From positions 1,426,001 to 1,490,000 of the forward strand of contig NZ_AP024269.1 of assembly GCF_016629525.1 (NCBI RefSeq): a stretch of 64,000 nt of DNA, given 5' to 3'. Positions 3,481 to 26,405 of this stretch are shown in pieces. The notes under the pieces were generated by a model that did no database searches, was not told where the DNA came from, and saw only the letters and a program-made list of their open reading frames with translations. The translations under genes and the position numbers were made by a program. Every line of letters starts with the position of its first letter. Within the stretch, counting starts at the first letter, position 1. The stretch is from Kaistia sp. 32K. GTDB lineage: Bacteria; Pseudomonadota; Alphaproteobacteria; Rhizobiales; Kaistiaceae.

Positions 3481-5148
3481 TTATTGCGGCGCCAGCGACT
3501 CCAGCTGTTTCAGGCGCTGCAGCGCGGCCTGCTGGCGCAGCAGGCCGTAATTGATCCCGCTCGCGTTCAGCGTGCTGCCCTCCTGGTAGGGGAACTCGCT
3601 GAAGTCGGCGAAGAATTCCTTGATCTTCCCCTGGATCGGCACCAGCAGCCACATGTTGCGCGCCAGGAATTCGGTGGCGCCGCCACCCTCGTGCAAGCCG
3701 CGCTCGTAGGGATCCATCCGGAGGTTGGTGATCAGGGCCCAGTTGGGCACCTCGCGCGTCGCCGTCGCGATATTGCCCTCGCTGGCGATGGCGAAGGAGA
3801 GCTTCCAGTCGTTCCAGCGGATGGCGTTCAGATTGCCGCCCTGGTCGAAATAATAGACCGCGTCGCGCGGCGGGTCCTTCGCGTCGCCCTTCAGCAGATC
3901 GCTGAGGTCGTAGCCGTCGAGATGCACCTTGAAGGTCTTGGATCCGGCGGCGAAGCCCTTCTTCATCTGCTCCTTGACGTCGGGAATGCCGGCGGCGGTG
4001 GCGAAGGTCGGCAGCCAGTCGATCAGCGTCACGGGATCGTTGATCTGGGTGCCGGGCTTCACCACGCCCGGCCAGCGCACCATCATCGGGATGCGGAAGC
4101 CGCCCTCCCAGGTGGTGCCCTTCTCGCCGTGGAACATCGTCATGGCGCCATCCGGCCAGAGCGCGATCTCGGCGCCGTTGTCGGTGGTGTAGAGCACGAT
4201 GGTGTCTTCGGTGATGCCGAGATCGTCGAGCTGCTGCAGAAGCTGGCCGACATGGCCGTCATGCTCCGCCATGCCGTCGGCGTGCAGGCCCTTGCCCGTC
4301 TTGCCGTTCGATTCCGGCTTCAGGTGGGTGAAGATGTGCATGCGGGTCGAGTTGAACCACACGAAGAACGGCTTGTCGGCCTTGTGCTGGCGGTCGATGA
4401 AGTCCTTGGCGGCGGCCAGGAACTCCTCGTCGATGGTCTCCATCCGCTTGGTGTTGAGCGGGCCGGTATCCTCGATCTTGCCGTCGGCGAAGGAGTGGAT
4501 GACGCCGCGCGGGCCGTATTTCTTCCGGAATTCGGGATCCTTCGGGTAGAAATAGCCCTCCGGCTCCTCCTCGGCGTTCAGGTGGTAGAGATTGCCGAAG
4601 AACTCGTCGAAGCCGTGATTGGTCGGCAGATGCTGGTCCTGGTCGCCGAGATGGTTCTTGCCGAACTGGCCGGTGGCGTAGCCCTTGGTCTTCAGCACGT
4701 CGGCGATCGTCGGCATCCAGTCCTGGATGCCGTGCGGGTCGCCCGGCATGCCGATCGTCAGGAGGCCGGTGCGGAACGGTTCCTGGCCCAGGATGAAGGA
4801 GGCGCGGCCGGCGGTGCAGCTCTGCTGTCCGTAGGAATCGGTGAAGATCGCGCCTTCGCTGGCGATCCGGTCGATATTGGGTGTCCGGTAACCCATCAGC
4901 CCCATCGTGTAGGCGCTGATCTGCGGGATGCCGATGTCGTCGCCGAAGATGACGAGGATGTTCGGCGTCTTGCCCGACGCGGCCGGCGTCTTCGCCGCGT
5001 CCTGCGCCAGAGCGGAAACCGGCCGCGCCGCCGAGGCGGCGCCGGCGACCAGCGCCGACGTCGCGATCAGCGCGGTCGTTCCCTTGAGAAGCGAGCGCCG
5101 GCTGACGCTCTCGGTCGTATGCCCAGTCTCTTCCTGCCGGTCTGTCAT
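3481..5148 (-). CDS. Arylsulfatase, Tat-exported
   Basis: A 555-residue type I sulfatase that hydrolyses sulfate esters in the periplasm. The catalytic cysteine is C111 in SCTAGR, the FGE target; the metal-binding N-terminal motif is NILVIFGDD and a YTTDNG motif lies further on. The N-terminus has SRRSLLKG before a hydrophobic stretch, a good twin-arginine signal. I place the start at the ATG at 5148, behind GTGGAGA; a TTG ten codons upstream is possible but has no ribosome binding site. It sits in the operon between a paralogous sulfatase and its maturase. The natural substrate is unknown. Confidence 0.93.
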   Translation of the reverse strand: MTDRQEETGHTTESVSRRSLLKGTTALIATSALVAGAASAARPVSALAQDAAKTPAASGKTPNILVIFGDDIGIPQISAYTMGLMGYRTPNIDRIASEGAIFTDSYGQQSCTAGRASFILGQEPFRTGLLTIGMPGDPHGIQDWMPTIADVLKTKGYATGQFGKNHLGDQDQHLPTNHGFDEFFGNLYHLNAEEEPEGYFYPKDPEFRKKYGPRGVIHSFADGKIEDTGPLNTKRMETIDEEFLAAAKDFIDRQHKADKPFFVWFNSTRMHIFTHLKPESNGKTGKGLHADGMAEHDGHVGQLLQQLDDLGITEDTIVLYTTDNGAEIALWPDGAMTMFHGEKGTTWEGGFRIPMMVRWPGVVKPGTQINDPVTLIDWLPTFATAAGIPDVKEQMKKGFAAGSKTFKVHLDGYDLSDLLKGDAKDPPRDAVYYFDQGGNLNAIRWNDWKLSFAIASEGNIATATREVPNWALITNLRMDPYERGLHEGGGATEFLARNMWLLVPIQGKIKEFFADFSEFPYQEGSTLNASGINYGLLRQQAALQRLKQLESLAPQ

Positions 5149-5250
5149 GCCATTCTCCACAAAGACAAAAGGGTTCAAAATGTCCGTTGGATTGCGATGC
5201 TGTCCGTTGCGATAGAGATGCCTTGGCTGTCTGAAACAACGCTTCCCGAA

Positions 5251-5282
5251 GGGAGACGGGCGAGGGGACCCGCCCGTCTCCC
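5251..5282 (-). other. Intercistronic GC hairpin
   Basis: Inverted repeat GGGAGACGGGCG / CGCCCGTCTCCC just after the stop codon of the upstream sulfatase gene. No U-tract follows on the minus strand. It resembles the hairpin at 3444-3468 after the other sulfatase gene. Confidence 0.6.
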
Positions 5283-5290
5283 CGCGGCGA

Positions 5291-6871
5291 CTAGTTCGGC
5301 TTCGGCCCGCCTTCGAGCGACTTCATCAGCGCCTCGACCATCTGGTCGACGCTGAAGCTCGCCGGGCGCTGGCTCGGCGGGAATTCCTTGAAGGTCTCGA
5401 GGAAGGGCGCGACGCGCCAGACGCCGTACTGGATCAGGTAGGCGTTCTTCGCCAGCCAGTCGTAATACTGGTCGGAGACGACGTCCGCCCGCTCGAACGG
5501 GTCCATGCGGAGGTTGAAGACCTTCGGCGCCCGAAGGCAGGTGAAGGGGTTTGCCCAGACCGGGAAGCCGCCCGGCGCGCGCTGCTCGCAGAAGACGATC
5601 TTCCAGTCGTTGTAGCGATAGGCGACGAGATTGCCGTCATCGTTGAAATAGAAGAACTCGTTGCGCGCGGATTTCGGCGCCTGGCCGGTCAGGTAGGGCA
5701 GCTGGTTGTAGCCGTCGAGATGGACCTTGAAGCTGTTGCTGCCGAGCTGCGTGCCCTTGAGCAGCTTGTCCTTGATGTCCGGCTCGCCCGCCGCCGCCAG
5801 CAGGGTCGGGAACCAGTCGAGGCCCGAGACCACCTGGTTGGAAACCTCGCCGGCCTTGATGTGGCCCGGCCAGCGCACCATCGCCGGCACGCGGAAGGCG
5901 CCTTCCCAGTTGGTGTCCTTCTCCGAGCGGAACGGCGTCGTCGCCGCATCCGGCCACGACCACTGGTTCGGGCCGTTGTCGGTCGTGTAGACGACGATGG
6001 TGTTGTCGGCGATGCCGAGATCGTCCAGCGCCTTCAAGAGCTTCCCGACATCGCCGTCATGCTCGATCATGCCGTCGGCATAGTCGTTGCCGGGCATCCC
6101 GCTCTGGCCCTGCATTTCGGGGCGCACATGCGTGAAGGCGTGCATGCGCGTCGTGTTCATCCAGGTGAAGAACGGCTTCTTCGCCTTGACCTGCCGGTCG
6201 ATGAAGTCGATCGCGGCGGCGGTGGTCTCGTCGTCGATCGTCTCCATCCGCTTGCGATCGAGCGGACCGGTATCCTCGATCTTGCCGTCGGCGGAAGCGC
6301 GCAGCACGCCGCGCGGCGAGTTCGACTTGACGAAGGCCAGGTCGTCCTTCGGGTAATAGGGCCGCTCCGGCTCCTCTTCGGCATTCAGATGGTAGAGATT
6401 GCCGAAGAACTCGTCGAAGCCGTGCCGGGTCGGCAGGTATTCGTCGCGGTCGCCGAGATGGTTCTTGCCGAACTGGCCGGTGGCGTAGCCGAGCGGCTTC
6501 AGCGCCTGCGCGATCGTCACGTCGCGGTCCTGCAATCCGACGGTGGCGCCGGGAATGCCGACCTTGCAGAGGCCGGTGCGCAGGCAGGTCTGGCCGGTGA
6601 TGAAGGTCGAGCGTCCGGCGGTGCAGCTGTTCTCCGCGTAGTAGTCGGTGAACTTGATGCCTTCCTTGGCGATGCGATCGATGTTCGGCGTCCGGTAGCC
6701 GACCAGGCCCTCGCTATAGGCGCTGATGTTGGTCTGGCCGATGTCGTCACCGAAGATGACGAGGATGTTCGGCTGGCTCGGCGCGGCGTCCTGGGCGAGT
6801 GCCGGCGCCGTCGGCGCCAGCAATCCGGCGCCGACGACGGCGGCGGACGCGATCCATCGTGATATTCGCAT
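5291..6871 (-). CDS. Arylsulfatase, Sec-exported
   Basis: A 526-residue paralogue of the neighbouring sulfatase. The catalytic cysteine is C83 in NSCTAGR, with the same NILVIFGDD metal motif and the same YRTPNIDRIA stretch. The N-terminus (MRISRWIASA, a hydrophobic core, then an ALAQ cleavage site) is a Sec-type signal with no twin-arginine motif, unlike its paralogue. The ATG at 6871 is chosen because GGGAGAAGG lies just upstream; the ATG seven codons earlier lacks a ribosome binding site. It lies 142 bases before the other sulfatase gene in the same operon. Substrate unknown. Confidence 0.93.
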   Translation of the reverse strand: MRISRWIASAAVVGAGLLAPTAPALAQDAAPSQPNILVIFGDDIGQTNISAYSEGLVGYRTPNIDRIAKEGIKFTDYYAENSCTAGRSTFITGQTCLRTGLCKVGIPGATVGLQDRDVTIAQALKPLGYATGQFGKNHLGDRDEYLPTRHGFDEFFGNLYHLNAEEEPERPYYPKDDLAFVKSNSPRGVLRASADGKIEDTGPLDRKRMETIDDETTAAAIDFIDRQVKAKKPFFTWMNTTRMHAFTHVRPEMQGQSGMPGNDYADGMIEHDGDVGKLLKALDDLGIADNTIVVYTTDNGPNQWSWPDAATTPFRSEKDTNWEGAFRVPAMVRWPGHIKAGEVSNQVVSGLDWFPTLLAAAGEPDIKDKLLKGTQLGSNSFKVHLDGYNQLPYLTGQAPKSARNEFFYFNDDGNLVAYRYNDWKIVFCEQRAPGGFPVWANPFTCLRAPKVFNLRMDPFERADVVSDQYYDWLAKNAYLIQYGVWRVAPFLETFKEFPPSQRPASFSVDQMVEALMKSLEGGPKPN

Positions 6872-7035
6872 GGCCTTCTCCCGTATTTCCATAAAGGGGC
6901 GGTCGCGTCACGGATGTGTCGAGAGGAAGAAACGCTCGTTGTGTTCGACTTCCGCGAAATTCTTCTTGAAGTCTTCTGGAACAAACAGTCTCGCCATCCG
7001 CTCGGGCGGGTGGCCAGATCATCGTCGAGGGTGCT

Positions 7036-8073
7036 TCAGGTCTCGGGCTTGGCCTCCGGGAAGGTCCATTTGCCGTCGAGGATTTCCTTGTGGGGCCGGT
7101 AGAGCCTTACCATGTAATTCCATCCTGCCACCGTTGGCAAGCAGTTGGCAATATTGTCGGCACAGCCGCCGAACTGTACGGCAACTGATCCGTCCGGCGA
7201 TTTCTTTGCCGTGATATTGTTGAGGGAATAGGCGTCGAGCGGATTCTTTGCATAGTATCCGTCAGCGTTGTAGACGCTGATCGACCAGAAGCCGTCGACG
7301 GGCACATCCCTGACGTCGAGCTTGTAGATCGTCTCGCCGTCGTTCTTTGGCGGCGTGACGTTCAGGTAGATCGCCTCCGTCTCCGGATTGCCGCCCCAGG
7401 CGGAGGCCGAGCCGATCAGCCGGCGGACGGGATCGACCTGCTGCTTGGTGCCGAACATGCGGTTGGTGTCGGGCAGCGTCGAGGCGAGCACGAGCAACGC
7501 CTCGCGCACCTTGTCCTGGCTTGCCGGGTCCCAGTTCGGGACCTCGAAGACGCCGACATTCTTCTGCTCGACCTGGATCGCATCCTGCAGGGCATGCACC
7601 GCCTTCAGGTCCTCGGGATCGGCGGGATCGACCAGGATGCGGATGCCGGCGACCACATAGCGGGTGCCGATATCGTCCTTCGACAGCGTGTATTTTCCCG
7701 GCTTGTAGTGGACGCCGTGGGTGTACTGGTCCTCGTCGATCACCTGCAACGAAAAGAAGCGCTTGCCGGCGTCGGGAAGGGTGATGGTCGCCGGTCCGGC
7801 GTCGAGATCGAGGACCACCGACGAATAGAGCGTATCGCGGTTCAGCCGGATGACCGTCTGGTGGTCGATCGGTGCCGGTTCGCGCCGGTGCTGAAGCTTG
7901 CCGATCCCGACGTCCTTGATCAGTCCGGCCAGATAACGATCCGATTCCGCCCGCACGAAATTGTCCGGCGTCACCGGAATGGCGGCGCCGGGCGTCTCGG
8001 CGGCCTGAGCCGCGAGGGCGGGGCTGCTGGCGGCGAGGGCGATGGCGAGGAGGAATGCGGAACGGGTCTTCAT
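7036..8073 (-). CDS. DUF1254/DUF1214 domain protein, exported
   Basis: A 345-residue protein with a clear signal peptide (MKTRSAFLLA to LAAQA). The DUF1254 part contains the family stretch NRDTLYSSVVLDLDAG and the C-terminal DUF1214 part contains GFWSISVYNADGYY. The family has no agreed biochemical role. It is the first gene of the minus-strand sulfatase operon, 164 bases before the next gene, so it may share the regulation of the sulfatases. Family assignment is good; function is unknown. Confidence 0.88.
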   Translation of the reverse strand: MKTRSAFLLAIALAASSPALAAQAAETPGAAIPVTPDNFVRAESDRYLAGLIKDVGIGKLQHRREPAPIDHQTVIRLNRDTLYSSVVLDLDAGPATITLPDAGKRFFSLQVIDEDQYTHGVHYKPGKYTLSKDDIGTRYVVAGIRILVDPADPEDLKAVHALQDAIQVEQKNVGVFEVPNWDPASQDKVREALLVLASTLPDTNRMFGTKQQVDPVRRLIGSASAWGGNPETEAIYLNVTPPKNDGETIYKLDVRDVPVDGFWSISVYNADGYYAKNPLDAYSLNNITAKKSPDGSVAVQFGGCADNIANCLPTVAGWNYMVRLYRPHKEILDGKWTFPEAKPET

Positions 8074-8706
8074 GGCGTTTCCCTGTGTCTGGCGGACGCG
8101 TGGACCGGTTTTGCTGCCAACTAGCGCCGACGGTTCCGGCGGCCAGAGGCAATCCCTGTGGTTGTCCGGAGCCGGCGCCGTTTGCCGGCGGCCTGGCTTC
8201 GGTGGAGGCTTTCCGGAAGGCGGGCCCTTCCGGGTCCTCTCGGGATCGGGCCTTCCTCCGGCGAAACGGGGTGTGGTTCGTGATCCGGATATACTATGGC
8301 TTCGGTCTATAAATCTCTCATTCCCTATCGGAATGATGGCAGACTAGGGAGAGGTTCGCGCGAGGTCCAGCGTCTTTTTCAGTCTGAAAACAATCCGATG
8401 TCGCCATGACCTCAAGGGAATGGCGAGGATTGTTGATACGGTTACATTATGGAAATTGTGTCGAATTTCGAAGTTTGCCGTTGGACTGGAACTTTGTTGG
8501 TTTCGCGTGAAATTTCTCCATCCGCAACCGGGTCGTGATGAGCGCGATGGCGCGCGGCCGGATGGCCACGACGCGCCGGCTCGCAACCGGTCTCGCCGGC
8601 CGCAACCTCTTGAAATCGCCGCCCCCTCCGGCTAGGACGGGCATGCGCTGGACGACCTGCGCCGTGGTGACAATCGGGGACGGCCCCGCCTTCTGAGGGG
8701 GCGGCC
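8074..8706. other. Intergenic region without a convincing gene
   Basis: About 630 bases between the divergent DUF1254 and atpB genes. The middle part (about 8280-8520) is more AT-rich than its surroundings and probably holds promoters for one or both sides. Short ORFs on both strands have neither good ribosome binding sites nor recognisable products. I see no RNA gene here. Confidence 0.5.
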
Positions 8707-9456
8707 GTGGCCGGACCTATCGAACAATTTGAGATCAAGCCGCTTCTGCATCTGTTCGATGTCGGGGGCGTCGAGATCGTCCTGACCAATTCGGCCGCCC
8801 ATATGGGACTGGCCGTCGCGATCATCTTCGCCTTCCTGATGCTGGCGACGCGGAAGGGCCTGATCATCCCGTCCCGCTTCCAGTCGTCGGCCGAACTGCT
8901 CTACGTCTTCGTCCGCGACATGTTGCGCGAGAATGTCGGGCAGGGCGGCATGCGCTTCTTCCCGCTGGTCTTCTCGCTGTTCATGTTCGTGCTGGTCGCC
9001 AATCTGATCGGCATGTTTCCCTATGCCTTCACGGCGACCAGCCAGATCATCCTGACCTTCTCGCTGGCGATGACGGTGTTCCTGACCGTCACCATCTACG
9101 GGCTCATTCTGAACGGCTTCGGCTTCTTCCGGCTGTTCCTGCCGTCCGGCGTTCCGCTGGTGCTGGCGCCGATCGTCATCCCGATCGAGATGGTGTCCTA
9201 TCTGTCGCGGCCGATCAGCCATTCGGTGCGTCTGTTCGCCGTGATGCTCGCCGGCCATATCACGCTGAAGGTGTTCGCCGGCTTCGTCGCCGATCTCTCC
9301 GGCGCCGGCGCCATGGGGCTCGCGACGGCGATCCTGCCGCTCATCATGACCGTGGCGCTGACGGGCCTGGAATTGCTGATGTCGCTCATTCAGGCCTATA
9401 TCTTCGCAATGCTCACCTGCATGTATCTGAACGACGCGCTCCACCCTGCGCATTGA
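8707..9456 (+). CDS. atpB: F0F1 ATP synthase subunit a, lone copy
   Basis: A 249-residue membrane protein matching the a subunit of F-type ATP synthase, which forms the proton half-channels against the c-ring. The essential arginine is present in [12 protein letters not shown], and [11 protein letters not shown] carries the Glu and Gln of the last helix. The position four residues after the arginine, normally Asn (RLFAN), is Val here. The GTG start follows GAGGGG with good spacing. Unusually, no other atp gene (atpI, E, F or F') is adjacent; the next gene is a SugE-type exporter. It may be a displaced or second copy. Confidence 0.9.
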
Positions 9457-17520: not shown

Positions 17521-17595
17521 TGGGGCGTCGCCAAGCGGTAAGGCAGCGGTTTTTGGTACCGCCATTCGGAGGTTCGAATCCTCCCGCCCCAGCCA
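17521..17595 (+). tRNA. tRNA-Gln(TTG), integration site
   Basis: Complete cloverleaf: acceptor TGGGGCG/CGCCCCA, anticodon stem GCGGT/ACCGC, loop TTTTGGT (anticodon TTG), T-loop TTCGAAT, CCA encoded. Its 3' end forms the left copy of a 21-bp repeat found again at 26136-26156, and an integrase gene begins 94 bases downstream. Confidence 0.96.
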
Positions 17596-17599
17596 GTCA
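17579..17599 (+). repeat. attL direct repeat
   Basis: 21 bases covering the last part of the T arm, the 3' acceptor strand, GCCA and four bases beyond the tRNA; identical to 26136-26156. Confidence 0.9.
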
Positions 17600-17648
17600 T
17601 CCAATTTTCCAATAAATGTCAGAGACTTGCTTGCTCCCGAGAGCGGGC

Positions 17649-17688: not shown

Positions 17689-19137
17689 ATGTCAGCTCCC
17701 CGCTATCTGAAGCTCCGAGGCAACGTTTATTGGTTCCAGATCGGCGTCCCGGCCGAGCTCCAGGTGCGTTACGGTAAGAAGCATGTTCAGGAAAATCTCC
17801 GAACGTCAGATCGATCCGTTGCGGCGCTCATGGCGCAGGGGCGGGCGGTTCACTGGAAGCGAGAATTCTCCCTCGACATGGAGACGCTTCGCGAGACGCG
17901 TACGCCTCGAGACGCTTTTTTGGAGACCCTGCGACAAATCGAATGGGTGAAGCGAAACTTCCCAGACCCCGAGGATGTAGAGCAGCACCTGGACATCCTG
18001 TGGGATAGCATTGCTGATCGAGAGGCAGCGCGCCTCGGTTTCGTCTACCTCAGTGAAGCTCCGGCTCATTTGGTATCTCCTGAAGTGGCGGCTGCTCTCG
18101 GCGCGATAAGAGCTGCTCAGCATGGGAAGGGAGGAATTCCAGCGGAATATGGCACGCCGTTCTCTGAACTCGCCGAACGGTTCAACAAGGACCGCCAGCG
18201 CGATTCACGCTCCAGCCTGTCGGACCAGACCATTAGTCAGCGAGAAGCCGTTTATCGGTTGTTCAAGGACCACATCAAGGATGCTGCGCTGGCGGTGGTC
18301 GATGTCCGGACGGCATCGGAGTTCTTCGATCGGGTGAAGAAGCTCCATCCCCATTGGGGGCGTTCTCCGAAAACCAAGTCGCGGTCGTTCAATGAGATCA
18401 TCGCCCTGTCGGAAAAATTGGACGGCGAGCGAATCTCCGGTCGGACCATTACCCGGTTCGCTTCCGATCTCGCCGCGCTGTGGGAGTGGGCCACGAAGCA
18501 AGGCGAGGTCACTGGCCCCAATCCGTTCGCCGGACAGAGGATGGAGAGCAAGGTTCGGAAGGGAGCCAACGCTCCTTGGCCCGTCGATGCTCTTCGCGAC
18601 TTGCTGCGTGGCTATGATGATGTCGGGTCCCTTGGACGCCCCGATCCAATCTACTGGCTACCTCGCATCGCGCTGCTTTCCGGAATGCGGTTGAACGAGA
18701 TCTGCTCCTTGGAAGCCGTCAACATCTGTGAGGCGGAGGGAGTCCGCTACTTTGACATCACGGCGGGCAAGACGGAGAGCAGTGTCCGCGTCGTTCCCAT
18801 TCACGCGGCGCTGGACCCATTTCTCGCCCTCGCGCCAATCAACGGATATCTGTTCGCCGATCTCAGGCCGAGCAAGCTGGACGGCAAGCGTGGCGCGAGC
18901 ATCGGCAAGACCCTTGGGCGGCGATTCAAGCTCATACCTGGCCACTCGACCTTCCACGCCTTCCGCAAGAACGTCGCTCAGACCTTCGAGCGTCATCGCA
19001 TCCCTGACACGGAGGCGGCCCAAATTCTCGGTCACAAGAAGGCTGGTATGACGTACGGCGTCTACTCCCCGAACGGGCTAGAAATTGATCAAAAGCGAGA
19101 TCTGATTGGATTGTTGGTGTTACCGGAAGGGCGCTGA
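17689..19137 (+). CDS. int: Tyrosine-type site-specific integrase
   Basis: A 482-residue phage-type integrase. The N-terminus (YLKLRGNVYWFQIGVP) matches the DUF6538-type N-terminal domain of many island integrases. The catalytic part has the first arginine in LLSGMRLNEIC, H-x-x-R in FHAFRKN, LGHKKAGMTYGVYS with the late histidine, and the nucleophile tyrosine in YGVYS. It starts 94 bases after tRNA-Gln and reads away from it, the classical arrangement for an integrase that targets that tRNA. The ribosome binding site is weak (AGG, 8 bases upstream). Confidence 0.95.
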   Translation: MSAPRYLKLRGNVYWFQIGVPAELQVRYGKKHVQENLRTSDRSVAALMAQGRAVHWKREFSLDMETLRETRTPRDAFLETLRQIEWVKRNFPDPEDVEQHLDILWDSIADREAARLGFVYLSEAPAHLVSPEVAAALGAIRAAQHGKGGIPAEYGTPFSELAERFNKDRQRDSRSSLSDQTISQREAVYRLFKDHIKDAALAVVDVRTASEFFDRVKKLHPHWGRSPKTKSRSFNEIIALSEKLDGERISGRTITRFASDLAALWEWATKQGEVTGPNPFAGQRMESKVRKGANAPWPVDALRDLLRGYDDVGSLGRPDPIYWLPRIALLSGMRLNEICSLEAVNICEAEGVRYFDITAGKTESSVRVVPIHAALDPFLALAPINGYLFADLRPSKLDGKRGASIGKTLGRRFKLIPGHSTFHAFRKNVAQTFERHRIPDTEAAQILGHKKAGMTYGVYSPNGLEIDQKRDLIGLLVLPEGR

Positions 19138-19325: not shown

Positions 19326-20375
19326 TTGTCACGACGACTGCGCCTCACAAAATTTCGTCACCTTTCGATCGACGATCCCTTTTTCGATAGCTTGAAGGCT
19401 GGCTATCGCGGCTTTCCCGCGTGGTTCGCCTCAAAAGCCGAAGAGGACGTGTATATTGTCGACGACGACGGACGTGTTAGCGGCATGATTTACCTTAAGC
19501 AGGAGATCGGCCCTATTCTGGACGTCAAGCCGCCGCTCGGATCAGGCAAGTGGTTGAAGGTCGGCACCCTTAAGATTGAGGGGCGCGGCACGAAACTCGG
19601 TGAACGAGTGCTAAAAAAGATTCTTGATACGGCGATTTCAGAAGGTCAGGACGGCGTCTATGTGACCGTCTTCGATATCCACGCAGACCTGATTGCTCTC
19701 TTCGAGAGGTATGGGTTCCAAAGGCACGCCACTAAAGCCACCGATGATGGCGTGGAACTGGTCCTCGCCAGAGATCTTAATACTGCAGTCGGGGACATCA
19801 TTGCCGATTATCCGTTCTTGCATCTCAATGGGAGGCGCTCTTGGTTGTTGGCGGTCTACCCACAGTATCACTCGCGACTGCTCCCCGACTCGATATTGAA
19901 TAATGAGCCGCGTGAGATAGTCCAGGATGTATCTCATACCAACACGATACATAAAATGTACATTGGTGGCGTCCCGTTAACTAGAATGTCTCGGGGCGAC
20001 ATGGTGGTTATATATAGGACATCGGATAGGCCCGGGCACGCTTATTTTCGATCTGTCGCAACATCGGTTTGTGTCGTCGAGGAGGTTCGGCGACGGAGTG
20101 ACTTTCTTAATGTCGACGACTTTGTAGCCTACGCGCTCCGTCATTCTGTTTATTCAGAAGACGAGCTTCGGGACAAATACGAAACTAGTAGCAGATTGTA
20201 CGTTGTGAAGATGACCTACAATGTGGCGTTCAGTAGGCGGACAACACGTGGACGATTGATGGAAGAGGCGGGGATTAGTGAGCAGCCTCGCTGGGATTTG
20301 AGAGAGCTGTCCGATGAGCAATTTGGTAGAATATTAGAACTTGGTCAGGTTGATGCGCGTCTTGTTATCCATTAA
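19326..20375 (+). CDS. GNAT acetyltransferase fused to a PUA/EVE-like domain
   Basis: A 349-residue protein. Residues 1-150 look like a GNAT acetyltransferase (GMIYLKQEIG, then the acetyl-CoA loop region RGTKLGERVLKK, then VYVTVFDIHADLIALFERYG). Residues about 155-349 form a second domain with MSRGDMVVIYRT, SVCVVEEV and LYVVKMTYN, which recalls PUA/EVE-type RNA- or modified-base-binding folds. The start is TTG, behind a ten-G run. It is the first gene of a tightly overlapping operon with an ASCH protein and a P-loop kinase. Base composition is more AT-rich than the host genes. The domain calls are by eye; the substrate could be RNA, a protein or a small molecule. Confidence 0.75.
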   Translation: MSRRLRLTKFRHLSIDDPFFDSLKAGYRGFPAWFASKAEEDVYIVDDDGRVSGMIYLKQEIGPILDVKPPLGSGKWLKVGTLKIEGRGTKLGERVLKKILDTAISEGQDGVYVTVFDIHADLIALFERYGFQRHATKATDDGVELVLARDLNTAVGDIIADYPFLHLNGRRSWLLAVYPQYHSRLLPDSILNNEPREIVQDVSHTNTIHKMYIGGVPLTRMSRGDMVVIYRTSDRPGHAYFRSVATSVCVVEEVRRRSDFLNVDDFVAYALRHSVYSEDELRDKYETSSRLYVVKMTYNVAFSRRTTRGRLMEEAGISEQPRWDLRELSDEQFGRILELGQVDARLVIH

Positions 20376-20778
20376 GCCGGTACATGTCGAGAAAATCCTG
20401 TCTGGCGTGAAGACTTTTGAGTTTCGTCGCCGAATATTTGCGCGCTGCGACGTAAGGACGGTGCTTGTCTATAGCACGATGCCGGTCGGGAGATTTGTTG
20501 CGGAGTTTGATATCTCCGACATAATTGTCGATGAGCCGGAGAGGTTATGGATGCGGACACGTGGCGGTGCCGGGATTTCGAAGGACTATTTCGATGCCTA
20601 CTTTGTGGATCGGGACAAGGCATTTGCGCTGTCGATCGGTGAGGTGAGGTGTTTCGAACAGCCTATCAATCCTGTCGATGTTATGGAGAATTTCACGCCT
20701 CCACAATCGTACATGTACATCGGGAATAAATTCGAACGCGTCAATCGCGCTCAAAATCAACTTGAGATGGTAGTTTAG
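20353..20778 (+). CDS. ASCH-domain protein
   Basis: A 141-residue single-domain protein. It carries the ASCH signature G-x-K-x-x-E-x-R as GVKTFEFR after the opening LLSIKPVHVEKILS, and continues with VLVYSTMPVGRFVAEF. ASCH domains share the PUA fold and are thought to bind RNA; some members cleave RNA or modified nucleosides. The ATG at 20353 lies inside the end of the upstream gene (23-bp overlap), and its TAG shares one base with the GTG of the next gene (TAGTG). This implies translational coupling of all three products. Confidence 0.85.
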   Translation: MRVLLSIKPVHVEKILSGVKTFEFRRRIFARCDVRTVLVYSTMPVGRFVAEFDISDIIVDEPERLWMRTRGGAGISKDYFDAYFVDRDKAFALSIGEVRCFEQPINPVDVMENFTPPQSYMYIGNKFERVNRAQNQLEMVV

Positions 20779-21347
20779 TGGCTGATCTTATCGTTGTTTT
20801 TGGTATATCGGGCGTAGGAAAGACGACGGCGTGCCGGGCGTATGCATCGCGTGGTGCGGGTGTGTTGCATGTTGGCGCCAGTGAGCTGCTTCGGAAGCAA
20901 ACTATGCTTTCATCAAGCGAACTGAGGATGTCTTCTCAAGAAGGCATACTCGCACGACAGATGGGGCTCAAAGCCGCGCTGGACGAGCGCACGCGGGGGA
21001 GATCTGAGCCTATTGTTGTGCTCGATGCCCATAGCGTGGTTGATAACGATCGGGAACTTGTCGCCGTCCCGGTGGGCGTTGTTCGGGCGTTAGCACCTAC
21101 TGCGCTGGTGCTTCTTGAGGCGCCAATTAGTGCCGTCGTCAGTCGCCGCACGTCGGAGGAGCGGCGCCCTAGTCGGAGCGAAGAGGCAATTTTTACTGAG
21201 ATGGCTACGGCTAGGTCGGTCGTCGCGGACTATGCACTCAAGCTTCGATTGCCGCTTGCGGTAGGTTATGTTGTCGATAACTTTGAATTGGGGACGTTAA
21301 TCGAGCGCCTTCTTCAGGAGGTCCGAGAAACTCAGGAAAAATTATAG
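20778..21347 (+). CDS. Small P-loop NTPase, adenylate-kinase-like
   Basis: A 189-residue P-loop protein with Walker A GISGVGKTT (residues 9-17) and an early hydrophobic strand typical of small nucleotide or nucleoside kinases. The later stretch VVLDAHSVVDNDRE resembles the Walker B region of archaeal-type adenylate kinases. The start is GTG, overlapping the stop of the ASCH gene. Its 3' end overlaps the convergent GNAT gene by six bases. The phosphate acceptor is unknown. Confidence 0.78.
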   Translation: MADLIVVFGISGVGKTTACRAYASRGAGVLHVGASELLRKQTMLSSSELRMSSQEGILARQMGLKAALDERTRGRSEPIVVLDAHSVVDNDRELVAVPVGVVRALAPTALVLLEAPISAVVSRRTSEERRPSRSEEAIFTEMATARSVVADYALKLRLPLAVGYVVDNFELGTLIERLLQEVRETQEKL

Positions 21348-21845
21348 GTGGTCACCTTCATTGTATCCCAATTCGTTTTGGTTGGGGGTGTACTGCCCAT
21401 GACGAACTGAAGTTATGTTGAATCCGTACCATTCGAAAACCCTTTCAAAGGCCGGTAACTTTCTTTGACCGATCGTGAGGTGGGGCTTGTCGACATCGAG
21501 CCACTTCAGCAAAGCATCAAAAATGCGAAGGCCATGGCCCCTCCCTTCATAGAGTGGGCTGACTCTGACGGTGCAGATTTTATTCTCACCGGGCTCCCGC
21601 TTTGCAATTCCAAGGCCCACGAGTGTACCGTCCCGCTCAATGCGATGCAGTAGTCGGCTCTCGGTTCTTAGTCCGGGAACAACTTTGTTGGTGAACCAGG
21701 ATTCGATCGCCGGATATTCGCCAGATAGGGGTACTAAAAAGGCAAGTGCCTCTTGCTCTCGCTCGGTGAGCCTCAGCTTTGTGGCTCCGGTCTGGGCCAG
21801 CGCAGGAATACATGGGTATGTCGGGCGGACGCGGACAATGTTCAT
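21342..21845 (-). CDS. GNAT-family N-acetyltransferase
   Basis: A 167-residue single-domain GNAT protein. The acetyl-CoA binding loop is in VSPLYEGRGHGLRIFDALL, and the C-terminal part has the usual FEWYGF turn. It is the second gene of a minus-strand operon: its ATG shares the bases ATGA with the stop codon of the preceding membrane-protein gene. Two GNAT enzymes in opposing operons of one element is unusual. The substrate is unknown; GNAT toxins, antibiotic-type enzymes and protein acetylases are all possible. Confidence 0.83.
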   Translation of the reverse strand: MNIVRVRPTYPCIPALAQTGATKLRLTEREQEALAFLVPLSGEYPAIESWFTNKVVPGLRTESRLLHRIERDGTLVGLGIAKREPGENKICTVRVSPLYEGRGHGLRIFDALLKWLDVDKPHLTIGQRKLPAFERVFEWYGFNITSVRHGQYTPNQNELGYNEGDHL

Positions 21846-22999
21846 TGGTCATTTCTCGTCGTTAGGCGATGAGCAAGGCCTTGTTCTGCCCGTCTCTGTA
21901 TACCGTCTGCGTCTGGTTCTCGACCTAGCACGGACGTTATACCCGCTGCCGCTAGATTCCCTACGATGGCAAAAATGAAAGCGATGGCAAGGTACAGGAT
22001 CAACGCTTTACGGCCAGTACGGCGAATTTGAAGCTTCACAAACGCGGAGAAATCCACGACTCCCTGAGGCGTGCTGGAATCAACACGCCAGTGGTACACC
22101 ATCATCCCTGGGGGAATCCCAGAAGGCACGTACTTGGTCCAGATTTCGTGCTCTAGAAGCCGGGTTTTGTGGGCTACTTTGCTGCTCACAGTCATAGCCG
22201 CCGATACTGGTACGGCGGTAAGAAACGCCACTCGTGAAAGGACTACCTTTCTTTCTCCCTGCTCTGTGCGCATACGGGACTCGATTGCATCGGGCAGGGT
22301 GCGCGCCTCGTTCAGGCGGAAATCCACGTACTCAATCGTTTCGGAGGAGCTTTGAAAGAACCGATCCTTCGGAGTTATGACGCGCACGAAGGGGCTGGGA
22401 TGTTTAGTTCCCACGTAGAACCGAAGACGAAAATATGCCGGGCAGTCTACGGGCATATTCACGATGCACTCGTCCAGCGCCTTTCGGGCTATCGTTACAA
22501 TTACCCCTTCTGAAAATTCCTCAATTGCTAGATTATTGGTGTCTATCATTCCTCCGTTTTGCCAAAACTGATGCACTCTGCAGAAAGGCTTTCCGGATTT
22601 TCTTAGTTCTACGTACTTTGGTCCTGGTGGTCCGCCAGCGTTGCACGTAAGATACTCGTTGAAGATGCCCTGTGCTATTTCAGGGTCCGCAAACTTGGGG
22701 CCGCAGTCCATTAAGTCGGACCGATCTAGTTTCCAAGGTACATAAATACTCACCGAATCAATACGAGTCGGGTCGAAGAGGAGTATGCCGACTTCGATAA
22801 AATCGCGGACGACGGCTCCGTTGCTTTTCTTGAAGTCCGCGTCACCGGCTAGTCGCCAGTAGTTGAAATGGAGTTCGGCTCGTGCCTCCTCCTGTCCGGC
22901 ACGATGAACGCACCAAAGAGCCATGCTTCCATCGACCGCCATGTAGATCCGCGTCCCCCAATTTATGTACGAATCACTTAGCCAAAAACGTGTACGCAA
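21842..22999 (-). CDS. Unknown protein with C-terminal membrane anchor
   Basis: A 385-residue protein that I do not recognise. Residues 1-325 are soluble and mixed in composition; a single strong hydrophobic helix (about residues 332-357, LILYLAIAFIFAIVG) is followed by a 28-residue polar tail, so it is tail-anchored. No signal peptide is present and the bulk should face the cytoplasm. The start is uncertain: a TTG at 22999 or an ATG at 22942 (residue 20). It is translationally coupled to the downstream GNAT gene. AT-richer codon use marks it as part of the acquired cargo. Confidence 0.65.
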   Translation of the reverse strand: MRTRFWLSDSYINWGTRIYMAVDGSMALWCVHRAGQEEARAELHFNYWRLAGDADFKKSNGAVVRDFIEVGILLFDPTRIDSVSIYVPWKLDRSDLMDCGPKFADPEIAQGIFNEYLTCNAGGPPGPKYVELRKSGKPFCRVHQFWQNGGMIDTNNLAIEEFSEGVIVTIARKALDECIVNMPVDCPAYFRLRFYVGTKHPSPFVRVITPKDRFFQSSSETIEYVDFRLNEARTLPDAIESRMRTEQGERKVVLSRVAFLTAVPVSAAMTVSSKVAHKTRLLEHEIWTKYVPSGIPPGMMVYHWRVDSSTPQGVVDFSAFVKLQIRRTGRKALILYLAIAFIFAIVGNLAAAGITSVLGREPDADGIQRRAEQGLAHRLTTRNDQ

Positions 23000-23354
23000 G
23001 CGTTTCTGCAGTCAATGACTGCGGTGGTTCTGGGATGTTGGGGCATTCCAAAAAATTGGCCTTGATTTGTGAGGGGATTTTCAATCGCGGCGAAAGGCCA
23101 ATTTCCCCCATCCTCCCTCACACGCTCTCCAGATTCGAGGGTTATTCTTGGCCGAAACAATTCATCCGCATGGATGCCCTATGCAACTCCGTAAGTGTGC
23201 GTCAGCACAGTGATCTGGCTAGGCGTCCAGTAGGCCACGCCCTACCGGACGTGTCCGCTTCGACCTCAGGTCCGTTCAATAGGATAGGAATTGACATTTT
23301 GGACGCACTCGACTCTCATGCCTAGACCTTTTGGACACTCTGGGCGAGGACTTC
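23000..23354. promoter_or_regulatory. Divergent control region with repeated TTTTGGAC
   Basis: About 355 bases between the unknown membrane-protein gene and the resolvase gene. It holds no gene. The octamer TTTTGGAC occurs at 23297-23304 and 23329-23336, 32 bases apart (three helical turns), the first directly after a TTGACA (23291-23296). This could be the resolvase promoter with two binding sites for the recombinase itself. Confidence 0.4.
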
Positions 23355-23954
23355 ATGACGACGGCGCATCCTTCAACAGGCCAGCTTATCGGCTACGGCA
23401 GGATCTCGACTACCGAGCAGGAAGCCGGTCTTGATGCGCAGCGTCGCGACCTCCTCGCGGCCGGATGCGGCAAGCTCTACCTCGAACAGGCCTCGTCTGT
23501 CGGCAAGCGGCCTGAACTGGAGCGGGCCATGGACTATGTCCGCGAGGGCGACACGCTGGTGGTGACCAAGATCGATCGTCTGGCTCGGTCGACGATCAAT
23601 CTCTGGGATGTTGTCCGGGCACTGGATGAGAAGGGCGTCAGCCTCCGAGTGCTCAACCTCGGCGGCGAGACCGTCGACACCAAGAGCGCCACCGGTCGGC
23701 TGATCCTCAACATCTTCTCCGGCTTTGCCCAGTTCGAACGCGAGATGATGCTGGAACGGCAGCGCGAGGGCATCGCCAAGGCCAAGGCTGAGGGAAAGTA
23801 TCTGGGCCGTAAGCCGACCGCGCGCCTCAAGGCCGACGATGTCCGCAAGCTCCACGCGGAGGGCAAGACACCGACCGAGATCGCCAAGGCGCTCGGAATA
23901 GGGCGTGGCAGCGTCTACAGGGCGCTGGAAGGCGTCGACAACGCCGCAGAATAG
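23355..23954 (+). CDS. Serine recombinase (resolvase/invertase family)
   Basis: A 199-residue small serine recombinase. The catalytic serine is in GYGRIST, the family segment DRLARSTINLWDVV follows, and GRLILNIFSGFAQFEREM leads into the long E helix. A C-terminal helix-turn-helix (KTPTEIAKALGIGRGSVYRAL) binds DNA. The ATG at 23355 follows GCGAGGA. It probably resolves or inverts a site within the element. A decayed relative lies at 25715-25980, near the right end. Confidence 0.93.
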   Translation: MTTAHPSTGQLIGYGRISTTEQEAGLDAQRRDLLAAGCGKLYLEQASSVGKRPELERAMDYVREGDTLVVTKIDRLARSTINLWDVVRALDEKGVSLRVLNLGGETVDTKSATGRLILNIFSGFAQFEREMMLERQREGIAKAKAEGKYLGRKPTARLKADDVRKLHAEGKTPTEIAKALGIGRGSVYRALEGVDNAAE

Positions 23955-24460
23955 CTGTCAGGCATGGACGGCGGAAGCTGTCGAGGGGCCGGATTTAGTC
24001 TCCGGAACAGAGAAGGCGTGGAATCTACACGCTGATCGTGAGCACGCCAGTCGTCGCTCAACGGCTTGGCCAGCGATCGCAGATATCGCTGCCCATCTGA
24101 GGAGGCGCTCATGGTTTGCGAGTCCTCCATGGCGAACGTCGAGCAGTTAATCGCCCCAGTCGGCTAGGCGCACGCGTCGTTTCTCGGCGGCCTCGCGCCA
24201 CGCCTTCTCCGTCTCGCAACTTCATCGCACGTCCTCCGGCACGTCAGATCATCCTGACGCGCATCGGAGAGGCATGCCCATTCCAAAGGCATCTCTGTGA
24301 AATTCAACCAATCGTTCCTCGACGGCGTCACCGATGCGCCAATCCCGCTCCCGTCCTTGGCTCGGGCCTTATGGCGGCTCGCTGCTCAGGCCCGTCGGCT
24401 GTCGACAAATCTAAGATTGCTTTCATCAAGCCATGCCCCATTGTTCTGGAGCATCGGCTG
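23955..24460. other. Gap with one tiny ORF
   Basis: About 500 bases between the resolvase and the ATPase gene. The only start with a good ribosome binding site (GAGGAGG) is the ATG at 24111, but it opens just 18 codons (24111-24167). Elements of this type often carry an AlpA-like excisionase here; I see no helix-turn-helix, so that gene may be lost. An open frame runs into the ATPase gene from 24116 but has no start signal. Confidence 0.4.
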
Positions 24461-25525
24461 ATGTCGCGCCCTGCCGCAGAGCGGCCCGTCAATCGCCTGG
24501 TCAGCATCTCGGCTGGCGATTTATTAGCTCGATCGTTCCCTGAGCGACGCTACGTGATTGATCCTTGGTTGCGGTCGGGGGAGACCGCGCTGATCTGGGC
24601 TGCCTCAGGCGTTGGCAAGACCATGCTGAGCTTAAGTCTGGCGATGGCCATGGCGACCGGTGGCAGCGCTGGCACCTGGAAGTCAGACCGTCCCTGGAAG
24701 GTCCTCTATGTCGACGGCGAGATGCACCAGCAGGACATCAGGGACCGCCTTGTCATGCTGGAGGAAACCGAGGCCGTCGCAATCGGTCCCCATGCTAGCC
24801 TGGCTGGCGGCCTGGTCTTCGTTAATCGACAGGGTCAGGCCCCGGAGGCCACCTTCTACGACCTGTCGACGTCAGATGGACAGGCGACACTCCTCGACAT
24901 GTGCAAGCAGGTGAAGGCCGAAGTCCTCATCCTCGACAACTTCACGACGCTCAGTGAGGGACTGGAGGACGAGAACGCTGCAACGTCGCTCAAGAAGATC
25001 CAGAGCTTTCTCCTCACCACCAAGCAGATGGGCCTGACCACAATTCTCGTCCATCACTCCCGGAAGGACGGTGGGGCCTTCAGGGGCAGCGCCTCGATCG
25101 AGGTTACGTTCGAGGTTGTGCTCGAACTGCAAAAGCCAGCCATCGCTCGGGTCGGAGGAGCATCCTTCGTCCCTCGGTTTGGGAAGTTCAGGCAACGGAT
25201 GGATGAGCGTCTTCTACCCCGAGCGTGGTCTCTGACCGAAAACGGATGGGAGGTGTCGGATGAGGTGGTCGTAGGAGAAGACGATCCGGTCGTCCGATGC
25301 GTGAAGTCGTTGGAGTTCATCAGCCAGCAGGAGATTGTCAAACACACCGGCCTGTCCAAAGGCACCGTCAGCAAGCGAATCAAGAAGGCGATCGAGATGA
25401 AACTTCTCAAGCCCGACGAAGCTGGCGAGTGCTTTGCGTCCGCTCGACGGATCCGGGAGAGCCCGGAAACCGATGGCCTCGACCAGGAGGACGATCTGTC
25501 GGATGCGGAGAGCAGTCCCTTCTGA
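24461..25525 (+). CDS. RepA-like AAA ATPase with C-terminal helix-turn-helix
   Basis: A 354-residue RecA-fold ATPase of the AAA_25/RepA type found in plasmids and islands. Walker A is AASGVGKT (residues 47-54), Walker B is VLILDNF, and LVHHSRKDGGAFRGSASIE matches the RecA-fold core of hexameric helicases such as RSF1010 RepA. The last 100 residues include a winged-helix-like segment (QQEIVKHTGLSKGTVSKRIK). The ATG at 24461 follows GGAG; the 115 codons upstream are arginine- and proline-rich and look non-coding. It may drive replication of the excised circle. Confidence 0.85.
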   Translation: MSRPAAERPVNRLVSISAGDLLARSFPERRYVIDPWLRSGETALIWAASGVGKTMLSLSLAMAMATGGSAGTWKSDRPWKVLYVDGEMHQQDIRDRLVMLEETEAVAIGPHASLAGGLVFVNRQGQAPEATFYDLSTSDGQATLLDMCKQVKAEVLILDNFTTLSEGLEDENAATSLKKIQSFLLTTKQMGLTTILVHHSRKDGGAFRGSASIEVTFEVVLELQKPAIARVGGASFVPRFGKFRQRMDERLLPRAWSLTENGWEVSDEVVVGEDDPVVRCVKSLEFISQQEIVKHTGLSKGTVSKRIKKAIEMKLLKPDEAGECFASARRIRESPETDGLDQEDDLSDAESSPF

Positions 25526-25714: not shown

Positions 25715-25980
25715 TCTCGACCTCAGCGAGGCTCCGCCTGAACTGGTCACGCCAGATACGATGCGGGCGAAGGCGACGCGATGGTGGTGGCCAAGATTCG
25801 ACCGACTGCCTCGACGACAAGGCGTTAGCCTGAGGGTGCCAACCTCGGCGGCGAGACCGTCGATACCGAGCGCCGCCGGGCGGTTGATCCTCAATGTGTT
25901 CTAGGGCTTTGCCCAGTTCGAGCGCGAGAGGATGCTGTAGCGGCGGCGCGAGGGCATCGCCAACCCCAAGGCGCAGGGCT
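25715..25980 (+). pseudogene. Decayed serine resolvase copy
   Basis: The DNA from about 25734 onward aligns by eye with the functional resolvase gene from about 23513. Shared stretches include GCCTGAACTGG, ACCTCGGCGGCGAGACCGTC, GGCTTTGCCCAGTTCGA and GCGCGAGGGCATCGCCAA. An internal segment of roughly 45 bases is missing, there are other indels, and at least two in-frame TAG codons interrupt the matching frame. No product is expected. Confidence 0.85.
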
Positions 25981-26135: not shown

Positions 26136-26156
26136 TCCTCCCGCCCCAGCCAGTCA
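26136..26156 (+). repeat. attR direct repeat
   Basis: Exact 21-base copy of the tRNA-Gln 3' end (17579-17599). The bases on either side differ from those at the left copy, which defines the duplicated core. Confidence 0.9.
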
Positions 26157-26405
26157 GCCCAAAATCCCCGAATTCAGTCTCTTTGCACGAAACGGCTCCC
26201 GCCAGTCCGATGCCGCTGCGCGGAGCCATGGATCGCGCGTCGCACGACCCTTGGTAGGGCCGGCGCGAGCGGGCGCTCGTCCCGGTTTTGATGCACCCTG
26301 TCGCCGAGGCGCCGCTGGCCGGCAGGATCTACTGAAACGCTTTACAGGGCCGCCTGTCGCTTCTACCTCTGCCGGCTTCGCAACGTTTGCTCGACAGGCC
26401 CCCCG

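What the first reader, a model, noticed from the sequence alone, without database searches (positions are those of the whole stretch)
19326..21347. Candidate new system: GNAT-PUA fusion, ASCH protein and P-loop kinase in one overlapping operon
Seen: three genes overlapping by 23 and 1 bases, on an island, in AT-richer DNA. GNAT plus a PUA/EVE-like domain, the ASCH signature GVKTFEFR and a kinase P-loop are all visible. Known: PUA, EVE and ASCH folds bind RNA or modified bases, and GNAT enzymes include tRNA-acetylating toxins. Inference: the three act together on an RNA or nucleotide target, perhaps for phage defence or as a toxin with its control proteins. I know of no named system with this composition.
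Basis: partly seen in the sequence, partly recalled or inferred. Interest (0 to 1): 0.85.

Follow-up and report, generated by a model that had tools for sequence, protein, structure and literature searches.

The report
Five-gene acetyltransferase toxin-antitoxin island
The three overlapping genes are a real, mobile gene set whose core pair is already catalogued as a suspected phage-defence or toxin-antitoxin system, but here it comes with a kinase, a second acetyltransferase and an unknown membrane protein that recur together in other bacteria.

Summary
GNAT-EVE (19326-20375), ASCH (20353-20778) and an AAA_17 kinase (20778-21347) overlap by 23 and 1 bases in an AT-richer island at a tRNA-Gln. 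The composition is not new. Bell et al. 2020 (PMC7641849) describe (PIN)-GNAT-EVE + ASCH + AAA_17 operons as predicted toxin-antitoxin systems. PADLOC lists the pair as PDC-M11A/B (9.6e-125, 2e-43). A phage record (PV340567.1) annotates the homologous pair as "GevT toxin / GevA antitoxin", next to cI. Of 53 related loci, 51 have an ASCH of this type and 47 the exact 23-base overlap. Beyond this, the convergent genes 21342-21845 (a second GNAT) and 21842-22999 ("X", C-terminal membrane helix, no known family) belong to the set: kinase, second GNAT and X occur together in 18 of the 53, in three gene orders, and the second GNAT in none of the 30 without the kinase. Best reading: a mobile toxin-antitoxin-type defence module, GNAT-EVE the toxin, ASCH its translationally coupled antitoxin, the other three accessory. 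Toxicity, target and phage protection are untested here. The ASCH lacks the catalytic threonine of the acetylcytidine hydrolase YqfB, so a YqfB-style "eraser" is not supported.

The parts
17579..17602 (+). left attachment-like repeat at the 3' end of tRNA-Gln (tRNA 17521-17595)
   Evidence: 24-base direct repeat, 23 of 24 identical to 26136-26159; homology of same-genus genomes to the left flank ends at window 17595-17610
17689..19137 (+). tyrosine integrase of the island (DUF6538 + Phage_integrase)
   Evidence: Pfam 50.7 and 37.2 bits, above cut-offs
19326..20375 (+). GNAT-EVE protein (GevT / PDC-M11A homologue); predicted toxin or effector
   Evidence: PDC-M11A 9.6e-125; Acetyltransf_1 22.3 bits; confident AlphaFold2 model, mean pLDDT 88.8, pTM 0.86
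20353..20778 (+). ASCH protein (GevA / PDC-M11B homologue), ATG start inside the GNAT-EVE gene; predicted antitoxin
   Evidence: PDC-M11B 2e-43; ZmASCH 5gus by profile 3.5e-21; 23-base overlap in 47 of 53 loci
20778..21347 (+). AAA_17 adenylate-kinase-like P-loop kinase, GTG start
   Evidence: AAA_17 58 bits; Walker A residues G9, S11, G12, V13, G14, K15 invariant in 17 of 17 aligned
21342..21845 (-). GNAT2, a second, stand-alone GNAT, convergent with the kinase
   Evidence: Acetyltransf_1 24.2 bits, cut-off 20.7; homologue in 18 of 23 kinase-bearing loci and 0 of 30 others
21842..22999 (-). X, 385 aa, no known family, C-terminal membrane helix
   Evidence: no Pfam family for it at E 5 and no PADLOC family for any of 14 aligned homologues; C-terminal hydrophobic segment in 14 of 14; present in all 18 loci with GNAT2
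26136..26159 (+). right attachment-like repeat
   Evidence: right edge not confirmed by an empty site

Best explanation
A horizontally mobile toxin-antitoxin-type defence module of five genes. Shown by sequence: the five genes recur together, with the ASCH start codon embedded in the 3' end of the GNAT-EVE gene. Inferred: GNAT-EVE is an acyl-CoA-dependent toxin whose EVE/PUA-like half picks a particular (probably modified) nucleic acid or nucleotide; translation of ASCH is coupled to that of the toxin, and ASCH keeps it in check through its base- or RNA-binding pocket. Infection, or loss of the element, upsets the balance and the toxin stops growth. The kinase, GNAT2 and the membrane protein X form an accessory set that sets the trigger or adds a second, membrane-located output.
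For: A homologous pair is annotated as GevT toxin and GevA antitoxin in Escherichia phage PhiR47_2, directly after cI; the same place in Lambda_4A7. ASCH of this type in 51 of 53 GNAT-EVE loci, exact 23-base overlap in 47 of 53. ASCH may be fused to an XRE-type HTH (L086), as expected of a self-regulating antitoxin. In five loci with a broken GNAT-EVE frame an ASCH-type frame remains unbroken, though in L039 without a start codon at the usual place; ASCH split in 0 of 51 (P about 0.07 by length, so only suggestive). Kinase and GNAT2 linked: 18 of 23 against 0 of 30, Fisher 5e-10 (loci not independent). In every X-anchored locus whose DNA I read (3 genomes, 4 viral contigs, 3 of 6 plasmids) an ASCH gene is near X. 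Defence neighbours: type I REase, Hhe/PDC-S37, type IIG, SIR2. Patchy: 8 of 297 genomes of the order, 0 of 6 others of the same genus in that sample.
Against: No experiment was seen; GevT/GevA is an annotation as deposited. The acyl-CoA loop of GNAT-EVE is atypical (K or R in 44 of 51 and G in 0 of 51 where a glycine is usual), so acetyl transfer is not assured. EVE is sub-threshold in the window protein. 30 of 53 loci lack the kinase, so it is not essential to the core; X also follows GNAT-EVE and ASCH in a Rhizobium plasmid with no kinase found (L146). Two loci carry ASCH, kinase, GNAT2 and X without a GNAT-EVE hit (L118, L137), and 5 of 11 genomes of the class sample with this ASCH have no GNAT-EVE hit; a simple toxin-antitoxin reading does not predict these. 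4 of 8 hand-picked neighbour proteins had no PADLOC match, and the neighbour count has no background control.
Confidence: 0.55

Rival explanations
1. Writer and eraser of an acylated base: GNAT-EVE acetylates a base in DNA or RNA (Iyer et al. proposed a DNA base, according to Bell 2020), and ASCH is an amidohydrolase that removes the mark, like E. coli YqfB on N4-acetylcytidine.
For: ASCH proteins can be N4-acetylcytidine hydrolases (PMC6972931, passages). In two Methylobacterium loci (L031, L019) the usual ASCH is missing and the gene after GNAT-EVE is another ASCH (Pfam 22.3 and 27.2 bits, cut-off 21.2) with the YqfB-like order K-x-x-T-x-R.
Against: The window-type ASCH has Glu in 41 of 41 sequences where YqfB has its catalytic Thr24 (the YqfB alignment is weak, 17-21% identity). 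The Methylobacterium ASCH starts 121-233 bases after GNAT-EVE rather than overlapping it, has no PDB sequence match and no profile match to the usual ASCH. K-x-x-T-x-R may be common in ASCH proteins generally (recalled), and one of the two GNAT-EVE genes, L019, is broken.
Confidence: 0.15
2. ASCH is the active RNase-like partner, as ZmASCH, and GNAT-EVE its regulator.
For: Profile match to ZmASCH over nearly the whole ASCH (3.5e-21); Tyr47 and Ser128 of ZmASCH correspond to Y40 and S119, each invariant in 41 of 41; ZmASCH cleaves single-stranded RNA (PMC5615036, passages).
Against: The Lys53 position is Gly in 35 of 41 and Lys in 1 of 41. ASCH is split in 0 of 51 loci while GNAT-EVE is in 5 of 53. 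The phage record calls the ASCH the antitoxin.
Confidence: 0.1
3. Pure addiction module that stabilises islands, prophages and plasmids, with no effect on phages.
For: Mobile contexts: att-flanked island, prophages, plasmids (33 of 72,556 records).
Against: Position after cI, where lambda carries its exclusion genes rexAB (recalled), and nearness to restriction and other defence genes in some loci are more typical of defence; an addiction module needs no kinase, GNAT2 or X.
Confidence: 0.15
4. Unrelated cargo genes that happen to overlap.
For: None beyond the absence of functional data.
Against: Overlap and co-occurrence counts, gene fusions and re-shuffled orders of the same gene set.
Confidence: 0.02

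Closest known systems
(PIN)-GNAT-EVE / ASCH / AAA_17 operons (Bell, Wolf and Koonin 2020, PMC7641849, citing Iyer et al.)
   Same: GNAT-EVE fusion, separate ASCH protein, AAA_17 ATPase in one operon; predicted toxin-antitoxin
   Different: No PIN domain here; GNAT2 and X are not mentioned in the passages read (figures and supplements not seen)
PADLOC candidate defence system PDC-M11 (A and B)
   Same: Both proteins match over nearly their whole length
   Different: The kinase matches no M11 model and X no PADLOC model at all
GevT/GevA of Escherichia phage PhiR47_2 (PV340567.1)
   Same: 45.6% identity for the first gene, same order, same 23-base overlap
   Different: Two genes only; kinase, GNAT2 and X not found in the 14.8 kb read
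ZmASCH (PDB 5gus/5guq), single-strand RNase
   Same: Closest solved ASCH by sequence; Y40 and S119 kept
   Different: Lys53 not kept
YqfB-type N4-acetylcytidine amidohydrolases
   Same: ASCH domain; Lys and Arg of the motif kept
   Different: Catalytic Thr replaced by Glu in 41 of 41
GNAT toxins of type II systems (AtaT/TacT kind; recalled)
   Same: GNAT-fold toxin with a small partner gene
   Different: Partner is ASCH, not a ribbon-helix-helix protein; toxin carries an EVE-like half

Membership tests
(PIN)-GNAT-EVE/ASCH/AAA_17 operon (Bell 2020) | GNAT domain | tested here: met
   Acetyltransf_1 22.3 bits, cut-off 20.7
(PIN)-GNAT-EVE/ASCH/AAA_17 operon (Bell 2020) | C-terminal EVE domain | tested here: inconclusive
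   Pfam EVE 11.8 bits, cut-off 23; a 55.6% identical homologue is annotated EVE domain-containing; C-terminal half modelled mostly with confidence but no fold comparison was possible
(PIN)-GNAT-EVE/ASCH/AAA_17 operon (Bell 2020) | ASCH gene in the operon | tested here: met
   PDC-M11B 2e-43; aligned with ASCH homologues; sub-threshold in Pfam
(PIN)-GNAT-EVE/ASCH/AAA_17 operon (Bell 2020) | AAA_17 ATPase (frequent) | tested here: met
   58 bits, cut-off 27
PADLOC PDC-M11 | both M11A and M11B | tested here: met
PADLOC PDC-M11 | anti-phage activity | not testable with these tools
   needs phage assays
GevT/GevA toxin-antitoxin | homologous adjacent pair with the same overlap | tested here: met
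GevT/GevA toxin-antitoxin | toxicity relieved by the partner | not testable with these tools
   needs expression
YqfB-type amidohydrolase | Thr24 nucleophile | tested here: not met
   Glu in 41 of 41
YqfB-type amidohydrolase | Lys21 and Arg26 | tested here: met
   K20 and R25, 41 of 41 each
YqfB-type amidohydrolase | Glu74 | not tested
   alignment too weak in that region
ZmASCH-type RNase | Tyr47 and Ser128 | tested here: met
   Y40 and S119, 41 of 41 each
ZmASCH-type RNase | Lys53 | tested here: not met
   Gly in 35 of 41, Lys in 1 of 41
canonical GNAT acyl-CoA loop ([RQ]xxGx[GA], recalled) | glycine at the fourth position | tested here: not met
   GNAT-EVE: G in 0 of 51; GNAT2 by contrast has G103 and G105 in 14 of 14

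The most novel reading that the evidence does not exclude
ASCH + kinase + GNAT2 + membrane protein X form an unrecognised sensor or signalling core that is plugged onto different effectors: GNAT-EVE (window and 18 of 53 loci), PIN-type GNAT-EVE (L114 and L144: X and kinase), and, without any GNAT-EVE hit, loci beside an Hhe-like helicase (L118) and a type I restriction enzyme (L137). The kinase and GNAT2 would make or destroy a modified nucleotide that the ASCH pocket reads, with X as a membrane effector.
Probability: 0.25. Interest if true: 0.8.

Novelty: new variant of a known kind. Interest (0 to 1): 0.5.

Why it matters
It turns a catalogued but uncharacterised two-gene candidate into a defined five-gene module, with two extra proteins (GNAT2 and X) that make good genetic handles. 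ASCH and EVE/PUA domains are read as modified-base sensors; a system that couples them to an acetyltransferase and a kinase would test that idea directly. It also gives a clear prediction for prophages: the pair sits after cI in lambdoid phages, and the same DNA is carried at 99% identity or more by 274 of 5,426 complete E. coli genomes.

Tried and rejected
Chance overlap and unrelated cargo: rejected. YqfB-like catalysis for the window ASCH: nucleophile not met. L089 joins GNAT-EVE and kinase sequence, but the P-loop start is gone, so I treat it as a deletion, not a fusion. Empty site: not shown. In same-genus genomes the right flank does not follow tRNA-Gln; in one (G1004) homology to the window resumes only at 41,654 after about 6 kb of other DNA, so the variable region may be larger than the 8.6 kb att-bounded element. 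Pseudogene asymmetry: P about 0.07, not decisive. X: no Pfam family for the window protein and only single weak hits among 14 homologues (best E 0.036), none in PADLOC, none convincing in PDB sequences (best E 0.31); its structure job had not finished. Papers: PDC-M11 (none), GNAT-EVE (Bell 2020 only), ASCH with GNAT or antitoxin terms. GevT/GevA: one search was swamped by the surname Geva (20 of 10,572 listed) and one search listed 15 of 25 papers, in none of which GevT or PhiR47 occurs; so no paper was found, but the search was not exhaustive and covers open-licence PMC only. A 2026 BREX paper (PMC12839542, passages) describes other GNAT systems, not this one.
Full report
What is there. Three + strand genes lie in 52-53% GC DNA: GNAT-EVE 19326-20375, ASCH 20353-20778 and a kinase 20778-21347, overlapping by 23 and 1 bases. 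The ASCH start is the ATG at 20353; 48 of 51 relatives have ATG or GTG at the same model position. In my alignments the window ASCH was entered from its second residue; residue numbers here are counted from that ATG. The first gene starts with TTG at the same place as most of its aligned homologues.

Identity. Gene 1 matches PADLOC PDC-M11A over its full length (9.6e-125) and phrog_6345 (3.4e-129); Pfam sees the GNAT half (22.3 bits, cut-off 20.7) and only hints at EVE (11.8 bits, cut-off 23). AlphaFold2 gives a confident model (mean pLDDT 88.8, pTM 0.86); a fold search could not be run. Gene 2 matches PDC-M11B (2e-43) and, as a family profile, the solved RNase ZmASCH (3.5e-21). Gene 3 is an AAA_17 adenylate-kinase-like protein (58 bits).

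Known before. Bell, Wolf and Koonin 2020 (PMC7641849; [quoted passage not shown] In the phage collection 16 of 50,697 records have a homologue. One, Escherichia phage PhiR47_2, names the pair GevT toxin and GevA antitoxin, directly after cI and before kil; Lambda_4A7 has the same place. The same DNA is in 274 of 5,426 complete E. coli genomes at 99% identity or more over at least 80% of the query.

How tight is the core? I collected 53 loci with a GNAT-EVE gene, 34 from GTDB genomes and 19 from IMG/VR. They are not de-duplicated: for example L018 and L040 are identical. An ASCH of the GevA type is found in 51 of 53 (in L021 diverged and 441 bases away). The overlap is exactly 23 bases in 47 (by model position; in L038 the codon there is no start codon), 29 in two (L036, L037), 3 in L039, and absent in L019, L021 and L031. 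In L019 and L031 (Methylobacterium) the next gene is another ASCH protein (Pfam 27.2 and 22.3 bits) with a K-x-x-T-x-R motif as in YqfB, 121 and 233 bases downstream. Among 385 genomes of the class, 6 have a GNAT-EVE at 1e-10 and each of the 6 has an ASCH nearby; 11 have the ASCH at 1e-8, so 5 have it without a GNAT-EVE hit. In the phylum sample 10 of 398 genomes have a GNAT-EVE. One PIN-GNAT-EVE-ASCH fusion (L082) and one ASCH-kinase fusion (L080) were seen.

Beyond the stated coordinates. The genes convergent with the kinase, GNAT2 (21342-21845) and X (21842-22999), are part of the set. Of 53 loci, 23 have the kinase; 18 of these also have GNAT2 and X; 5 have the kinase alone (L021, L028, L046, L048, L058). 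GNAT2 occurs in 0 of the 30 loci without the kinase, and X in 1 of 30 (L038, weak). Fisher tests give 5e-10 and 9e-9, but the loci are related, so these are rough. The orders differ: GNAT-EVE>ASCH>kinase> <GNAT2<X in 11; kinase>GNAT-EVE>ASCH>GNAT2> <X in 6; kinase>GNAT-EVE>ASCH>X>GNAT2> in 1 (L032). On a tree of 46 GNAT-EVE rows that I chose and labelled (L033, L037 and L039 left out), the five-gene label needs 5 changes, and well-supported branches force 5: the set has been gained or lost repeatedly.

In 13 loci with a longer, PIN-type-like frame (500 aa or more; L114-L117, L123-L126, L129-L133) an ASCH is near in 13, a kinase in 10, X in 1 (L114) and GNAT2 in 0; Pfam sees PIN only weakly in the three scanned. 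So GNAT2 and X mark mainly the short GNAT-EVE form.

Starting from X instead: 3 of 297 genomes of the order have it, 6 of 72,556 plasmids and 4 viral contigs, two of which (L141, L142) are contigs already met as L041 and L043. The three genomes have ASCH, kinase and GNAT2 beside it. The six plasmids each have a GNAT-EVE hit within 2 kb by coordinates; I read the DNA of three, all with ASCH. The four viral loci have ASCH beside it; two are cut off by the end of the stretch at ASCH. In two Rhizobium plasmids X follows GNAT-EVE and ASCH directly, in one of them (L146) with no kinase found; in a Paracoccus plasmid X overlaps the kinase gene by 8 bases. Two genomes have X, GNAT2, kinase and ASCH but no GNAT-EVE hit: L118, next to a 1965-aa protein matching PDC-S37 and Hhe, and L137, between a Fic-like candidate and a type I restriction enzyme. 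Of 8 neighbour proteins picked for PADLOC, 4 matched (L118, two of L137, and a type IIG enzyme by L114) and 4 did not. In 14 of 14 aligned X proteins there is a C-terminal hydrophobic segment.

Residues. ASCH (41 sequences): K20, E23, R25, Y40, P44, F52, W66, Y83, P117-Q118-S119 and Y122 are invariant. YqfB is inactive without Lys21, Thr24 or Arg26 and much weakened without Glu74 (PMC6972931, passages): Lys and Arg are kept, Thr is Glu; the alignment to YqfB is weak (17-21%). ZmASCH uses Tyr47, Lys53 and Ser128 (PMC5615036, passages; positions placed by me from its printed mutagenesis primers and the alignment): Tyr and Ser are kept, Lys is not. GNAT-EVE (51 sequences): the acyl-CoA loop reads mostly [R/K/H]-G-T-[K/R]-L-G, with no glycine at the fourth place in any of 51; GNAT2 has both usual glycines in 14 of 14. 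The GNAT loop rule is recalled.

Mobility. tRNA-Gln (17521-17595), an integrase and a 24-base repeat (23 identical) delimit 8.6 kb. Same-genus genomes match the left flank only up to about the tRNA 3' end (17595-17610). The right edge is unconfirmed and the variable region may reach 41.6 kb. GNAT-EVE is found in 8 of 297 genomes of the order, and in none of the 6 other same-genus and 6 other same-family genomes of that sample.

Neighbours of the genome loci: of 162 candidate ORFs, 150 were printed; I dropped 34 by hand (30 of them module genes or their pieces, or the Methylobacterium ASCH and near neighbours; a few others) and scanned 116 from 32 of the 34 loci. Pfam finds Peptidase_S24 in 4, HTH_3 in 4, Phage_integrase in 2 (25 of 99 families shown). 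PADLOC hits at 1e-10 include pAgo, RmrA, HerA, SIR2, DndB and PDC-S25 models, one member each (25 of 78 families shown). There was no background control, so this is context, not enrichment.

Decay. GNAT-EVE is split over two or more frames in 5 of 53 loci (L019, L033, L037, L039, L057; L021 has several copies and is not counted), X in 3 of 19 (L033, L037, L039), the kinase in 1 of 23 (L039), ASCH in 0 of 51, GNAT2 in 2 of 18 (L033, L037). In L039 the ASCH frame has a stop codon where the start would be. Draft-assembly errors cannot be excluded. With seven breaks in GNAT-EVE, none in ASCH has P about 0.07.

Verdict. A real, mobile, conserved module. Its core is a known but, as far as I saw, experimentally open toxin-antitoxin and defence candidate; its five-gene form, with GNAT2 and X, is to my knowledge undescribed. 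I saw no figure or supplement of Bell 2020 and no paper on GevT/GevA, so this is held with caution.

Noticed in passing
window 46414-49713: Long array of imperfect repeats (13 copies of a 300-base reference, many at 156-base spacing; 22 copies of a 120-base one), probably a repetitive surface or secreted protein gene.
   Followed up: no
window 23331-23954 and 25840-25978: Serine recombinase gene (Resolvase 134.6 bits) and a partial second copy 2.2 kb away (111 bases at 85%).
   Followed up: no
window 24116-25525: AAA_25 ATPase with a winged-helix-like C-terminus, inside the att-bounded element.
   Followed up: no
L031 7280-7750, L019 7180-7644: A different ASCH protein with a K-x-x-T-x-R motif takes the place after GNAT-EVE in two Methylobacterium genomes.
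   Followed up: partly
L118 6355-8997, L137 8222-10929: X, GNAT2, kinase and ASCH without a GNAT-EVE hit, beside an Hhe/PDC-S37-like gene and a type I restriction gene respectively.
   Followed up: partly
L145 (Rhizobium anhuiense plasmid) 3609-9204: Two modules in tandem: GNAT-EVE/ASCH/X followed by a second, diverged ASCH/GNAT-EVE/kinase set.
   Followed up: no
L086 2843-3643 (minus strand): ASCH fused to an XRE-type HTH (HTH_3 36.8 bits), upstream of a GNAT-EVE-like gene.
   Followed up: no
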